Assembly (NCBI RefSeq): GCF_007747445.1
Contig: NZ_CP036425.1
Location: 1,472,175-1,536,174, forward strand
Length of the DNA: 64,000 bases
DNA from: Poriferisphaera corsica
Lineage (GTDB): Bacteria > Planctomycetota > Phycisphaerae > Phycisphaerales > Phycisphaeraceae
Direction: 5' to 3'
Shown here: positions 3,604-11,455 of the stretch, one piece after another
Layout of the letters: every line of letters starts with the position of its first letter
How positions within the stretch are numbered: the first letter of the stretch is position 1
The notes under the pieces: model-generated
What the model saw: the letters and a program-made list of their open reading frames with translations, nothing else
Database searches by the model: none
What the model was told of the DNA's origin: nothing
Program-made: the position numbers and the translations under genes

Positions 3604-3831
3604 CTATTGGCGTTCTTCGAGTTCATCGGGTGGTGTGATGTCGGATTGTGTATGTAGATGTTCAGGCGCTTCTGGAACAGAGACAACCTTGTAAATGCAC
3701 CAGCTCAAAAGTGTCGTCATGCCGCCAATTGCGAGGATCATAATGATGATGCCAAGTGGCGTGATACTGTGTGTATTAGATTGAGCTGTGAGATCAGATG
3801 CTTGTGCGATCAATGTGATGAGTGTACTCAT
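3604..3831 (-). CDS. Small single-span membrane protein, probable accessory subunit of the NSS symporter
   Basis: A 75-residue protein with one strong transmembrane segment (about residues 27-49, GIIIMILAIGGMTTLLSW) and a short acidic, Pro-rich tail ending DELEERQ. Its ATG overlaps the TGA of the symporter gene by 4 bases (ATGA, 3828-3831), so the two are translationally coupled. By analogy with other bacterial NSS transporters that are encoded with a tiny membrane subunit (MetS-type), it may be a partner of the symporter. That role is inference from position and topology, not from sequence homology I can verify. Confidence 0.75.
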   Translation of the reverse strand: MSTLITLIAQASDLTAQSNTHSITPLGIIIMILAIGGMTTLLSWCIYKVVSVPEAPEHLHTQSDITPPDELEERQ

Positions 3832-5405
3832 AGTTCAGCTCCTTTCATTGATTTATCTCTGCGATCCCATCGGCGAACGGCTTCAGATATAACGAGGATA
3901 ATAAATACAATCGTAAGAATGATCATGCCAAGAGTAATTTGGACAGGAAGACTATTCTGAATCTGATCGGTGATGGTTTTGTCGAGGATCAAATTCGTAA
4001 TGACCCAGTATGTGAATACGCCAATCAGGTAGACCGGACAGATGATTGTCACGACATATGGGATGATTCGAGGCACACGGATCTCGGCGCCACGATCAAT
4101 TTCTTCCTGACCTTTACGTATACCCATGATGAAGCCAAACATGAGGACTTGGATTGTTGCGAGAATGTAGATACCAACGGTTGCAATCCATGTATCAAGA
4201 GTTGCCAGGGCCGCGAAATCTTGTGTGAAATAAACAACAATGAATGTGCCTGAAATCGTGATAAAGCCGAGGATCGCACAGGAGGCGCGACGTCCGAGCC
4301 CAAGAGCTTCTTCGAGGAAAGCAATGGCGGGTTGGAGCATGGAGATGGATGAGGTGGCTGCTGCAAGAAATAGTAGGAAAAAGAAGAGGAAACCGAAGAA
4401 GTTGCCAAAGGGCATCGCATCAAATACGGCTGGTAAAGCGACAAAACCAAGGTTAAACGATGAGCCGTTAACAGCAGGGTCAGACATCGTTTCGGGGCCA
4501 AGGAAGTAGATTGCGGCAGGGACGACGATCATGCCACCCAGAACGACTTCTGTGAAACCGTTACCCGCCGCAGCGGTAATAGCTGATAACGATATATCGT
4601 CATTTGGTTTCAGGTAAGAGGCGTAAGTGATGATGATGCCAAATCCAACAGAGAGTGAGAAGAAGATTTGACCCGCAGCATCAAGCCATATGTCACCAGA
4701 CATCAGTAGATCCCATTTGGGATTCCACATGTAACCTAAACCATCGAGAAGCGATCGATCGGGGAATTCTGGATTGCTGCCTAGGGTAAGGACTCGGATG
4801 AGTATGATGATCGCGCAAAGGATAAGCGTCGGCATCGCAATTTTACAGAAAAGCTCGATACCCTTGGAAAGTCCGCGATAGATGAGAAAGAAGTTGAGTA
4901 TGAAGCAGATGCCGAGGAAGATGAGTGCGTTGCTAAGTGGGTTTTCGAAGAGGATGCCGTTCTGTGATGCGCCTGTGAATGCGGCAAAGAAATCTTTGAT
5001 GTTTTCGGGTTCGGGCATCGTGCCGGTAGCGTATTTGTAGGCGTAGCCGAGGCACCATGCTTCGATAAAGACATAAAAGGTGTAAATGAGTATCGGAATG
5101 ACGGGGCCAAGCGTGGCAACGTATGAAGCTAAGTGCGAGCGTCTGCCAACAGCTCTAAAAACGCCGGGAGTGGAGTTGTATCCGTATCTGCCACCGTATC
5201 GACCGAGCGCCCATTCGGAGAAAGCGATAGGCAATCCCAAGATAAGAAAAGCAATAATGTAGGGGATCATGAACGTGCCGCCATATTCGGCGAGCAAACC
5301 GGGGAATCGGAGAAAGTTACCGAGGCCGACGGCTGAACCGGTAACCGCGAGGATCACGCCAACACGCGTACCCCATGATTCCTTCGGCCGTTGTATTTCT
5401 GACAT
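3828..5405 (-). CDS. Sodium-dependent neurotransmitter:sodium symporter (NSS/SLC6-like) family transporter
   Basis: A 525-residue polytopic membrane protein. It begins with the NSS hallmark region WGTRVGVILAVTGSAVGLGN followed by FLRFPGLLAEYGG. This contains the unwound TM1 that binds Na+ and substrate in LeuT-type transporters. About 11-12 hydrophobic segments follow. The substrate is typically an amino acid, but which one cannot be read from the sequence. AGGA lies 8 bases before the ATG. It forms an operon with the small membrane protein downstream, which overlaps its stop codon. The upstream 200 bases face the divergent YqaA-like gene. Confidence 0.9.
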   Translation of the reverse strand: MSEIQRPKESWGTRVGVILAVTGSAVGLGNFLRFPGLLAEYGGTFMIPYIIAFLILGLPIAFSEWALGRYGGRYGYNSTPGVFRAVGRRSHLASYVATLGPVIPILIYTFYVFIEAWCLGYAYKYATGTMPEPENIKDFFAAFTGASQNGILFENPLSNALIFLGICFILNFFLIYRGLSKGIELFCKIAMPTLILCAIIILIRVLTLGSNPEFPDRSLLDGLGYMWNPKWDLLMSGDIWLDAAGQIFFSLSVGFGIIITYASYLKPNDDISLSAITAAAGNGFTEVVLGGMIVVPAAIYFLGPETMSDPAVNGSSFNLGFVALPAVFDAMPFGNFFGFLFFFLLFLAAATSSISMLQPAIAFLEEALGLGRRASCAILGFITISGTFIVVYFTQDFAALATLDTWIATVGIYILATIQVLMFGFIMGIRKGQEEIDRGAEIRVPRIIPYVVTIICPVYLIGVFTYWVITNLILDKTITDQIQNSLPVQITLGMIILTIVFIILVISEAVRRWDRRDKSMKGAEL

Positions 5406-7597: not shown

Positions 7598-8152
7598 TTA
7601 ATAAGATTTTTTCTCGTGGAAGCGGAAGAGTGGGCTAAGTCGATAGAGCAGGGCCCCGATTGGAAATGATAGAACCGTCGTATAAAGCACCATCATGAAG
7701 TAGCGGTACATTTGTGTTGCAGAATCCCAGCCTTCGATCGGATCGTTCGTTAGCCATGAGAATGATCGCATCTTGAAAAAGCAGATGGTTGTGAGTCCTG
7801 CGAATACGCCCGCGCTGAAGGTGAGGATCGCAAGTGTAAAAACCGATTCTTTAAAGACAAGACCACGCATCTGAATAATCGTAAAGCCTGCCAACAGATA
7901 GCCAAGTGAGGCCGGCCCAATAATCGTTGCGCTAGGATTTGTCGTTGTGATCAGGTCCGTCAGAATGCCCAAGGCAAGCATCGCCCAAAGCGCAAGATAG
8001 GCTCGAGCTGACAGGCAAATATAAACACCAAAAATCAGCAATAACGACGGTGCCATACCACCAAACGCTTCAGGCAAAGAGATCAGCGAACCAAACCCTT
8101 TTTGAAGTGCTAAGAAAATATATGCGAAGATGGCGAATACGACCCAGTTCAT
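7598..8152 (-). CDS. mreD: Rod shape-determining protein MreD-like
   Basis: A 184-residue protein of about five to six transmembrane segments, directly downstream of mreC on the minus strand. Family members are inner-membrane parts of the Rod complex that position lateral wall synthesis with MreC and MreB. Sequence identity in this family is low, so the call rests on topology plus position. I chose ATG at 8152 (MNWVVFAIF), 13 bases after the mreC stop. The longer frame from 8197 would overlap mreC by 32 bases and adds an unlikely hydrophilic leader. No mreB is present in the window. Confidence 0.75.
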   Translation of the reverse strand: MNWVVFAIFAYIFLALQKGFGSLISLPEAFGGMAPSLLLIFGVYICLSARAYLALWAMLALGILTDLITTTNPSATIIGPASLGYLLAGFTIIQMRGLVFKESVFTLAILTFSAGVFAGLTTICFFKMRSFSWLTNDPIEGWDSATQMYRYFMMVLYTTVLSFPIGALLYRLSPLFRFHEKKSY

Positions 8153-8165
8153 AGCTATTCTTTGA

Positions 8166-9041
8166 TTAGTATCCTTGTTGAGGAATGACGATATCAACCT
8201 CCCGCAGTCGTGAAAGTTCGATACGCGGTTGAATAATCATGCGATTCAATAAGAACGGTTTGTTTGGATCCGGGATAATCTCGATGACCTGACCGACGAT
8301 CGCACCCTTAGCTTCACTCGGCCAATATATGTTTCGTTGATCCGATAGGTGAGCCCAGTCACCAATCTGAACCGGTGCCTCGACTTCAATCGACGCATAA
8401 AACGTTTGGTAATTATCATCAGGATTACGTTCGAGCAGATACTCTTTGCTCAGCCTAGCAGCGTCGCTTTCATTGTGCGAGCTGACAATCACCGGCAATT
8501 GCACCGACTGACTGTTAATCAATCGCACCTCTGCGGTCAACGGCGAAATCTGATGGATCACACCAATCAGGTTCCCCGCATATATAGCCACATTCCCAGC
8601 AGACAAGCCTTGGTTTTGACCTTTGGAAATCGTGATCGACGGATTGATCTTATCGTTTGATGTGGATGTCGTCCTCGCTTTGACCAGCGTAATACCTTCA
8701 GCTCCCTGATTGCTGCTCGGTGCGTTTCGTAAGAGTTGGTTTTCCATCCGTAATTGCTGGTTTTCGATCTCAAGTCTGCGGATGTAAAACGTTGCTTCAG
8801 AGTATTCCGCTTGCAGCTGATCAAAGCTGCTGATATTCGGCACATCCAATTTCTTTTGAGGCCGTACCGACAACGATAGCCCGTGAAAGATCGCGGTGAT
8901 TGGCGTGAGGGCCATCGATAACATGGTCTGCGGGACGTACGTAACCTTCCCCGCAATTGATGGTGGCAGCATGCTACTAACCAGCAATGCCACCGCAACA
9001 AGCACCAACGCTCGTTGTGAGTTGTGTGATTTCAAACTCAT
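8166..9041 (-). CDS. mreC: Rod shape-determining protein MreC
   Basis: A 291-residue protein with one N-terminal membrane span (about residues 10-28), then a coiled-coil (about 70-105, QLQAEYSEATFYIRRLEIEN region). The periplasmic beta-domain of MreC follows, with ITISKGQNQGLSAGN and GVIHQISPLTAEVRLI as family hallmarks. It scaffolds the elongation machinery with MreD, encoded next. Adjacent mreD supports the call. Phycisphaerae planctomycetes retaining mre genes is consistent with the inferred host. Confidence 0.9.
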   Translation of the reverse strand: MSLKSHNSQRALVLVAVALLVSSMLPPSIAGKVTYVPQTMLSMALTPITAIFHGLSLSVRPQKKLDVPNISSFDQLQAEYSEATFYIRRLEIENQQLRMENQLLRNAPSSNQGAEGITLVKARTTSTSNDKINPSITISKGQNQGLSAGNVAIYAGNLIGVIHQISPLTAEVRLINSQSVQLPVIVSSHNESDAARLSKEYLLERNPDDNYQTFYASIEVEAPVQIGDWAHLSDQRNIYWPSEAKGAIVGQVIEIIPDPNKPFLLNRMIIQPRIELSRLREVDIVIPQQGY

Positions 9042-9106: not shown

Positions 9107-9790
9107 TTACTCACCCAAAAATACAATCGGCCCTGCAGCTGCTAACTGCAAGTTAGGTTTCCACTCATTCATGATAAACCTTGGATATCCCAACGCATTG
9201 TTGACCGCAAGATTGACCGAATACAACGCTCTGGAAAAATCATCATCATTCCGAATCGCCACTAACTTCCCGGTCATGACCGTCTCGTTTAAGCGATTGC
9301 TGAATCCTTCAGTTGAATCAGATAGCCGAATATTCGCCTGCCAGATCCCTGCCGACAGCTTGCGACCGCCCACATCATTGTAGATGTACAAGAACCCCGC
9401 GCCCGAATACACGCCCACCGTTCGTTGTCCAAGCTCATTCTGGCCAAACGTCACATAATGCAGTGTCGCGTTTGTTGCCGTCTCGTCGATCGGTGTCTGT
9501 GACGGGATTGGCTTCCAGAACATCCGAATCGTAAGCGCTTCTGTCGGATTTCTAAACGTCCCCTTCACCATCAAAATCGTCAAATTCTCTTTGTCATCAA
9601 TCATATACGCGCTGCGTTCGAACTCAGTCAGCAGAACCCGCTCGCCGCTGATCTCATTCGTCAGCGTGATCTTACCTGATTCGCCACTTAAAACAGGCAA
9701 TGACGGTATCTTTGTGATGCAACCACCAGCCATGAGCATCATGACCGCGCACGCACTAATTATCAGAGCAAAAACAGGATTGATCTTCAC
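9107..9790 (-). CDS. Lipoprotein of unknown function (YcfL-like layout)
   Basis: A 227-residue protein with a signal peptide ending in the lipobox LMAGGC, Cys at about residue 24, so a lipid-anchored envelope protein. The mature part contains FRNPTEALTIRMFW and an all-beta-looking C-terminal half. It resembles in layout short planctomycete/proteobacterial lipoproteins with an immunoglobulin-like fold, but I cannot name the family firmly. The start is GTG at 9790 with GAGGAG 10 bases before it. It begins 3 bases after the stop of the amidohydrolase-like gene, so the two are one operon. Confidence 0.75.
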   Translation of the reverse strand: MKINPVFALIISACAVMMLMAGGCITKIPSLPVLSGESGKITLTNEISGERVLLTEFERSAYMIDDKENLTILMVKGTFRNPTEALTIRMFWKPIPSQTPIDETATNATLHYVTFGQNELGQRTVGVYSGAGFLYIYNDVGGRKLSAGIWQANIRLSDSTEGFSNRLNETVMTGKLVAIRNDDDFSRALYSVNLAVNNALGYPRFIMNEWKPNLQLAAAGPIVFLGE

Positions 9791-9793
9791 GTT

Positions 9794-10858
9794 TTATTTC
9801 TCCTCTGATTCGGCTTCTTCCGTGTCCGACTCAGATTCAATGACGGGCATCTGTTCGACAATCGGCTCATCGTCCGCAAGCTTCAGCGTCTGCGCCTCAC
9901 TTGCCGCGGCTGCGTCCGCTGCCTCCGCATTCTGTTCGTCTGGCGATGGCACAACCACTTCCATGACCTCAACCAATTTCTGTTTTGACGCATCCCCATC
10001 GTTCGCACTCGCAGGCTTTTGCAGCCCCAGCAATCCAAGCGTGTCACGCTCAATAATCGATCGCAAGACCTCTCGCGGCACCGATGGTAACTGCATCCCC
10101 TGGACCAGCGTATTCACCGAGTAAATCGTCATGATCGCTTTTTCAGGCGTGCAATACGGGAACCCCGACCCAAAAATAATCTGTGACGTGACACCCTGCT
10201 GGTGTGCCAACAGCAGCGCGTTATACAACTGCCATGGCCTTCTAATCAGATCTGTCAGATCTGTATACACCGTCGGATGTTTACCAATCAGTGCAATTGC
10301 CTGTTCAATCCATGGATGTCCAAGCGAGTTGATCACAATCTTCAAGTTCGGGAACGTCCGTGCAACCTCATCAAGTAAGTATGGCTGCCCAAACTCCATC
10401 TTCACATCACGTGCAAACATCGCATCAAACTCGATGAACACCGGCACGTTCCGCGCTTCACACGCCTCATACAATTCCATCGCATCCGTATTCGATGGAT
10501 GGAACCCACCAGCCGACGGACTCACCGTCACGCCAGCCAATCCCAAGGCCAATCCACGTTCCAGCGATGCCACCGCATTCCCCGCCGTCGGATCAATCCC
10601 CATAAACCCTAAATACTTCGATGGATTGCGTTTCACGTACTTCGCAACGCACTCATGTGCGATCGAAGCCTTCAGGTATGCCGACTCAAAACCCAAGATG
10701 ACAGCCGTCTCGATTTTCGCCATCGCCGCATCATGCGCATCCGTCGATGCCGCCGGCCTGTCCCACGGGGTCACCTGACGACGCAGCATCTGCTGTGCCA
10801 CCGCCGGGCCAAGTTGTTCCGTAGACTCCCAAATCCGTGTGTTGATGTCGACAATCAT
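9794..10858 (-). CDS. Amidohydrolase-2-fold protein lacking the metal-binding residues
   Basis: A 354-residue protein with the TIM-barrel layout of the amidohydrolase_2 family (GFMGIDPTAGNAVASLERGL, GLAGVTVSPS, IIFGSGFPY…TPEKAI). The ATG at 10858 gives the usual very short N-terminus before strand 1. Every position where the family carries a metal ligand is changed: the N-terminal HxH is INTRI, the next His is replaced in VFIEFDA, the later 'HlGg' reads NSLGH, and the 'GSDxP' Asp is Gly in FGSGFP. It is therefore probably a non-catalytic, scaffold or binding protein. A 65-residue Ala/Glu/Asp-rich tail follows the barrel. It is co-transcribed with the lipoprotein at 9107. Confidence 0.75.
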   Translation of the reverse strand: MIVDINTRIWESTEQLGPAVAQQMLRRQVTPWDRPAASTDAHDAAMAKIETAVILGFESAYLKASIAHECVAKYVKRNPSKYLGFMGIDPTAGNAVASLERGLALGLAGVTVSPSAGGFHPSNTDAMELYEACEARNVPVFIEFDAMFARDVKMEFGQPYLLDEVARTFPNLKIVINSLGHPWIEQAIALIGKHPTVYTDLTDLIRRPWQLYNALLLAHQQGVTSQIIFGSGFPYCTPEKAIMTIYSVNTLVQGMQLPSVPREVLRSIIERDTLGLLGLQKPASANDGDASKQKLVEVMEVVVPSPDEQNAEAADAAAASEAQTLKLADDEPIVEQMPVIESESDTEEAESEEK

Positions 10859-11077: not shown

Positions 11078-11455
11078 TTAGCCCGCCTGAGCGTCGTAAT
11101 CCGCAGCCGAAAGCAGCCCGTCAAGCTGTCCAGCATCTGAAACCTTGATCTTCAGCAGCCAGCCCTTGCCGAACGGATCTTCGTTAATCAGTGACGGATT
11201 ATCAATCACTTCCTGATTGACAGCAATCACTTCACCGTCAATGCCGGTATAGATTTCGCTTGTTGCTTTCACAGATTCCACCTCAGCAACGCTGTCTCCC
11301 TTCGACACCGCGCCTTCCTGGACCAGTGCTTCCACATACGTAATGTCCGTCAATTCTTCCACCGCGAATTGACTGATCCCCAGGGTGACCACATCACCCT
11401 CAAGTTTGTGCCATTCGTGTGATTCAAGATATCGGCAATCAGCAGGGCTACTCAT
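11078..11455 (-). CDS. gcvH: Glycine cleavage system H protein
   Basis: A 125-residue lipoyl-carrier protein of the glycine cleavage system; it shuttles the aminomethyl group between the P, T and L proteins. The lipoylation site is Lys63 in EVESVKATSEIY. The flanking GVSQFA-like region (TLGISQFAVEELTDI) and DNPSLINEDPFGKGWL are typical. AGGAG lies 8 bases before the ATG. It stands alone: gcvT, gcvP and lpd are not in the window. No glycine riboswitch was recognised in its 300-base leader. Confidence 0.92.
   Translation of the reverse strand: MSSPADCRYLESHEWHKLEGDVVTLGISQFAVEELTDITYVEALVQEGAVSKGDSVAEVESVKATSEIYTGIDGEVIAVNQEVIDNPSLINEDPFGKGWLLKIKVSDAGQLDGLLSAADYDAQAG

What the first reader, a model, noticed from the sequence alone, without database searches (positions are those of the whole stretch)
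9794..10858. Amidohydrolase-fold pseudoenzyme with every metal ligand replaced
The barrel is kept, but the HxH of strand 1, the central His residues and the final Asp of GSDxP are all changed (INTRI, FIEFDA, NSLGH, FGSGFP). Loss of all ligands at once, with the fold and an added acidic tail preserved and an operon with a lipoprotein, points to a selected non-catalytic function.
Basis: partly seen in the sequence, partly recalled or inferred. Interest (0 to 1): 0.55.

Follow-up and report, generated by a model that had tools for sequence, protein, structure and literature searches.

The report
Enzyme fold with lost metal site
This bacterial protein keeps an enzyme's barrel shape but has lost every residue that would hold the catalytic metal; its relatives have lost those residues many separate times, and many sit beside an amino-acid transporter gene or a lipoprotein gene, which suggests a non-enzyme job.

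Summary
In detail: the ORF (354 aa, minus strand, start 10858) is a significant Amidohydro_2 protein. All five canonical active-site positions are changed: H6N, H8R, H143E, H178S, D232G. The interpretation needs correcting. Loss was neither "at once" nor shared. In 118 family members from one Planctomycetota class the five positions vary almost freely (67 combinations; 3 intact; 29 without any metal ligand). Each position was lost at least 7-9 times on well-supported branches (12-19 on the best tree). Eight canonical paralogues keep all five. The barrel meanwhile evolves as slowly as neighbouring GcvH, and three fully ligand-less relatives have dN/dS 0.05-0.09, so this is not simple decay. The acidic tail is not conserved. 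Gene context gives the lead. A lipoprotein gene lies directly downstream in 63 of 93 family loci. In another branch the next gene is an NSS transporter (36 of 40 genomes searched). None of 29 transporter-adjacent members has an intact site. The window genome's only NSS gene is LeuT-like and 4.4 kb away. Best reading: a repeatedly evolved pseudo-amidohydrolase working non-catalytically in a transport/envelope module. Non-catalysis is well supported; the transporter role is inferred, and gene-loss lineages and missing-transporter genomes count against it.

The parts
9794..10858 (-). pseudo-amidohydrolase (Amidohydro_2 barrel), 354 aa
10841..10843 (-). residue 6, canonical His (strand 1), here Asn
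10835..10837 (-). residue 8, canonical His (strand 1), here Arg
10430..10432 (-). residue 143, canonical His (strand 5), here Glu
10325..10327 (-). residue 178, canonical His (strand 6), here Ser
10163..10165 (-). residue 232, canonical Asp (strand 8), here Gly
9797..10003 (-). acidic C-terminal tail (residues 286-354), fast-evolving, not conserved in the family
9107..9790 (-). lipoprotein of an unnamed family (no Pfam or PDB match), starts 3 nt after the barrel gene; Cys24 after a signal-like stretch
11078..11455 (-). GcvH (glycine cleavage H protein), upstream neighbour in 18 of 23 same-family loci
8166..9041 (-). MreC, downstream; next to the lipoprotein only in the window and G001
7598..8197 (-). 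MreD
3828..5405 (-). the genome's only SNF/NSS transporter gene, LeuT-like; 4.4 kb from the barrel gene, with two opposite-strand genes between

Best explanation
It is a pseudo-amidohydrolase: an Amidohydro_2 barrel kept by selection for something other than metal-dependent catalysis. Shown by computation: an old family of one Planctomycetota class, descended from canonical-looking enzymes, lost the metal and catalytic residues over and over while the barrel stayed under purifying selection. It is genetically linked to a lipoprotein and, in another branch, to an NSS (LeuT-fold) transporter. Inferred: the ancestor gained a second, non-catalytic role; catalysis then became dispensable and was lost lineage by lineage. 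Inferred, less sure: that role is as a cytosolic partner (assembly, stability or gating) of a membrane transport or envelope module formed with the transporter and/or the lipoprotein. The barrel starts at strand 1 with no signal peptide, so it should be cytosolic, while the lipoprotein is exported; the two would then meet only indirectly or through a membrane protein.
For: Ligand columns are as variable as ordinary columns in 93 members (each more variable than 104-249 of 285 columns), while all 8 paralogues are HHHHD. Among 118 members: 67 combinations, 3 intact, 29 with none of four metal ligands. Irreversible-loss minimum per position: 12-19 on the quick tree, 7-9 with only branches of 95 or more; 13-19 and 8-11 on the careful tree. 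Barrel pN 0.065 with synonymous sites saturated, like GcvH 0.068 and far below the lipoprotein 0.244 and MreC 0.340; the ligand-less EQRGG trio has dN/dS 0.05-0.09. Lipoprotein directly downstream in 63 of 93 family loci, in 0 of 18 canonical loci. NSS gene downstream, same strand, in 36 of 40 genomes; in 23 of 25 measured loci the ORF gap is 139 nt or less. None of 29 NSS-adjacent members has all five residues. NSS is normally one copy per genome (15 of the 16 bearers). G227 carries barrel, lipoprotein and NSS in a row.
Against: No biochemistry. Three members keep all five residues and 18 of 118 keep all four metal ligands, so some may still be enzymes. The barrel is dispensable in places: genus g21 (G021, G191) has GcvH and the lipoprotein adjacent with no barrel gene between, and many f2 genomes have the lipoprotein without it. 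NSS is missing in 120 of 248 genomes, including G014 and G009 that have barrel plus lipoprotein; G049 has NSS but no barrel hit. In the window the NSS gene is not in the same operon. In f9, f17 and f19 lipoprotein and barrel are on different contigs. The 40 genomes were picked mostly because they had an NSS hit.
Confidence: 0.5

Rival explanations
1. Decaying enzyme: catalysis is no longer needed and the protein is on its way out; ligand loss and gene loss are stages of one decline.
For: Graded loss, then absence of the gene between GcvH and lipoprotein in g21 and in many f2 genomes.
Against: Barrel as conserved as GcvH; dN/dS 0.05-0.09 in ligand-less trio; D4, P90, P234 invariant in 118 of 118; homologues in 214 of 248 genomes of the class (paralogues included).
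Confidence: 0.15
2. Still an enzyme by metal-free or relocated chemistry, its pocket reused with other residues.
For: D4 and P234 invariant and S231 in 117 of 118 near the barrel mouth. Metal-independent amidohydrolase-superfamily enzymes exist (LigI, recalled). The nearest solved relative, BB4693 (3irs), itself shows Met and Ala at the strand-5 His and strand-8 Asp positions (alignment).
Against: No invariant polar set replaces the lost residues; position 143 alone takes 13 different letters and position 232 takes 8.
Confidence: 0.2
3. Metal-binding but non-catalytic: members with HxH plus the strand-5 His bind metal structurally or as sensors; the others lost even that.
For: 22 of 24 rows of the f18/20/23/24 clade keep three His but lack strand-6 His and strand-8 Asp.
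Against: Cannot apply to the window protein or the 28 other members with no ligand.
Confidence: 0.1
4. No single role: intact members are enzymes and each degenerate lineage was reused differently.
For: Neighbours differ between lineages (GcvH, lipoprotein, NSS, adenylosuccinate lyase).
Against: The same lipoprotein and transporter recur in distant lineages, next to intact and degenerate members alike.
Confidence: 0.15

Closest known systems
Amidohydro_2 (PF04909) / COG2159-type enzymes; BB4693 (PDB 3irs) is the nearest solved chain
   Same: Same fold family by profile (34 of 34 members scanned).
   Different: The metal site is absent here and eroded across the family; BB4693 also lacks two of the positions.
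Fungal Ssd1/Dis3L2 pseudonucleases (PMC8097288; abstract and one section read)
   Same: An orthologous family that kept a second function while the active site was lost independently at least four times; some members still look active.
   Different: Bacterial, another fold, more losses, residue-by-residue mosaic; the second function is not known here.
CRMPs (PMC4051505; passages read)
   Same: Amidohydrolase-superfamily barrel with missing metal ligands and a kept pocket; non-enzymatic role.
   Different: Animal Amidohydro_1/dihydropyrimidinase branch.
rBAT/4F2hc subunits of heteromeric amino-acid transporters (PMC9110406; passages read)
   Same: A glycosidase-like barrel protein serving as partner of a LeuT-fold amino-acid transporter (fold class of the transporter recalled).
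   Different: Those are extracellular, membrane-anchored and proven by structure; here only gene linkage.
LeuT (PDB 2a65)
   Same: The window's transporter matches over nearly full length, 2.2e-110.
   Different: No barrel partner of LeuT is known to me (recalled, not searched in Aquifex).

Membership tests
Amidohydrolase family 2 (fold) | PF04909 profile match above cut-off | tested here: met
   82.2 bits against 26.4; 34 of 34 members
Metal-dependent amidohydrolase-superfamily enzyme | HxH, strand-5 His, strand-6 His, strand-8 Asp present | tested here: not met
   N, R, E, S, G
Metal-dependent amidohydrolase-superfamily enzyme | binds metal and turns over a substrate | not testable with these tools
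   needs purified protein
Pseudoenzyme | catalytic residues lost relative to active homologues, protein under purifying selection | tested here: met
Pseudoenzyme | no catalytic activity, with a non-catalytic function | not testable with these tools
   inferred only
Ancillary subunit of an NSS transporter | conserved gene linkage with the transporter | tested here: met
   36 of 40 genomes; in the window only proximity, 4.4 kb
Ancillary subunit of an NSS transporter | strict co-occurrence | tested here: not met
   NSS in 128 of 248 genomes, barrel homologue in 214 of 248
Ancillary subunit of an NSS transporter | physical complex | not testable with these tools
Predicted TIM barrel (own structure model) | confident model matching amidohydrolase structures | tested here: inconclusive
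   pLDDT 47.8 from two sequences; no Foldseek match at E 0.001 or better

The most novel reading that the evidence does not exclude
A bacterial counterpart of heteromeric amino-acid transporters: a pseudo-amidohydrolase barrel acts as the cytosolic ancillary subunit of a LeuT-type Na+-coupled transporter, with a lipoprotein as the outer partner, and this role freed the active site to decay a dozen or more times.
Probability: 0.2. Interest if true: 0.82.

Novelty: new variant of a known kind. Interest (0 to 1): 0.62.

Why it matters
It looks like an unusually rich natural experiment in pseudoenzyme evolution: one orthologous bacterial family spans every stage from an intact site to total loss and gene deletion, in a conserved neighbourhood. 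That makes it possible to test whether a second function precedes loss of catalysis. If the transporter link is real, it points to an accessory protein for bacterial NSS transporters, the family of LeuT and of human neurotransmitter transporters.

Tried and rejected

A salt bridge R8-E143 replacing the metal was considered: R8 goes with an acid at 143 in 13 of 33 rows, H8 in 5 of 40. On independent pairs it is 2.4 for and 0.1 against among 5, not significant, so it is not claimed.

An MreCD/cell-shape link was rejected: within the fetched flanks MreC/MreD sit directly after the lipoprotein only in the window and G001. A hidden diverged barrel gene next to the lipoprotein in f2 genomes was sought with a sensitive profile search in 19 loci fetched around lipoprotein hits: no significant match (best E 8); L145 there ends at a contig edge and cannot tell.

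Technical slips, corrected: one search translated several loci on the wrong strand (replaced); branch collapsing failed; one search truncated the f20/f18 rows. In the careful tree the family is one clade, but the printed support of its stem (71/78) may have been shifted by re-rooting; in other trees it is 100 and 98. Rows dropped: L120 (distant homologue) from all trees; L033 had no family hit; L168-L170 used only.

Paper searches (open-licence PMC only) listed no paper on such a family or on an amidohydrolase-NSS gene pair; that is no proof that none exists.

Full report
Observation. The ORF at 9794-10858 (minus strand) encodes a 354-residue Amidohydro_2 protein. Aligned with relatives, its five canonical active-site positions read N6, R8, E143, S178, G232 instead of H, H, H, H, D. 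The nearest genome has the same letters (L031, 85% identity overall).

Family. A homologue is found in 214 of 248 genomes of the class (this count includes paralogues and a few weak hits). I fetched a hand-picked sample, skewed to high-scoring members and, for the last 25 rows, to genomes with an NSS hit: 118 family rows plus 8 paralogues. In every tree, built without the ligand columns, the family forms one clade. Canonical paralogues lie outside it, and so do homologues from other classes of the phylum (7 HHHHD and 3 HNHHD of 10).

Erosion. Of 118 rows, 3 keep all five residues, 27 four, 34 three, 11 two, 14 one and 29 none; there are 67 different five-letter states. On the careful tree each position needs at least 13-19 irreversible losses, or 8-11 if only branches with bootstrap 95 and SH-aLRT 80 are kept. 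If regain is allowed the minima are 10-15 and 7-9. In the first 93 rows the ligand columns rank among ordinary columns for variability, whereas D4, D89, P90, S231 and P234 are invariant; with 118 rows D4, P90 and P234 stay invariant and S231 is kept in 117. The window's 9-row clade had lost four positions earlier and H6 only in the window's genus, so the losses were not simultaneous.

Selection. Between window and G001 the barrel has pN 0.065 with saturated synonymous sites, close to GcvH (0.068) and far below lipoprotein (0.244), MreC (0.340) and its own tail (0.30). Three close relatives with no ligand at all have dN/dS 0.05-0.09. Other close pairs reach 0.13-0.28, so constraint varies. The acidic tail is not a family feature: median tail length is 12, and 5 of 93 rows have net acidity of 10 or more.

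Neighbours. A lipoprotein of an unnamed family lies directly downstream in 63 of 93 family loci and in none of 18 canonical loci. A signal-like stretch with a conserved Cys is seen in most members; no Pfam or PDB relative was found. GcvH lies upstream in 18 of 23 loci of the window's GTDB family. In genus g21, GcvH and the lipoprotein are adjacent with no barrel gene between (L146, L147).

Transporter. The gene after the barrel in families f13, f18, f20, f23 and f24 is a sodium:neurotransmitter symporter (PF00209). Comparing positions, 36 of 40 genomes searched have it just downstream on the same strand (in G227 with the lipoprotein gene between); G198, G044 and G053 have it on another contig, and for G242 its position was not listed. 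Nine more genomes show direct adjacency. In 18 genomes checked for copy number, 15 have one such gene, G001 has two, and G014 and G009 have none. The window genome's only copy lies 4.4 kb from the barrel gene, on the same strand but beyond two opposite-strand genes, and is LeuT-like (2.2e-110 to 2a65). In f19 genomes the transporter and the lipoprotein are convergent neighbours while the barrel gene is elsewhere. G227 carries barrel, lipoprotein and transporter in a row. None of the 29 transporter-adjacent rows has an intact site.

Mechanism. Shown: recurrent loss of the metal site under continued selection on the barrel, with conserved gene linkage. Inferred: a second, non-catalytic role that predates the losses, as argued for fungal Ssd1 (PMC8097288). 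Inferred and weaker: that the role is in a transport or envelope module with the transporter and lipoprotein. Against it: the transporter is absent from 120 of 248 genomes, the barrel is absent from g21 and from many f2 genomes that keep the lipoprotein, and no physical evidence exists.

Relation to known kinds. It is a member of Amidohydro_2 by fold and fails the ligand test for a metal-dependent enzyme. It works most like repeatedly evolved pseudoenzymes (Ssd1/Dis3L2) and like CRMPs in its superfamily. The transporter idea resembles rBAT/4F2hc, by analogy only. Verdict: a new variant of a known kind, more interesting as a family than as a single protein.

Noticed in passing
L146 3609-4583 and L147 3402-4399: In genus g21 GcvH directly precedes the lipoprotein gene; the barrel gene present between them in sister genera is gone.
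   Followed up: partly
L177 and L178 (G134): One genome carries two barrel-NSS gene pairs, both barrels HHHRG.
   Followed up: no
L163-L167 and L171-L189: This whole clade has a shortened stretch after strand 1 (proteins mostly about 260 aa), and 22 of 24 rows keep three His but lack the strand-6 His and strand-8 Asp.
   Followed up: partly
PDB 3irs (BB4693), alignment: The nearest solved relative also seems to lack the strand-5 His and the strand-8 Asp, so ligand loss may occur elsewhere in Amidohydro_2.
   Followed up: no
L149 and f19 genomes: Lipoprotein and NSS transporter genes are convergent neighbours although the barrel gene is elsewhere.
   Followed up: partly
L184 3253-3930: About 0.7 kb between barrel gene and NSS gene in G164 with no lipoprotein match; content not examined.
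   Followed up: no
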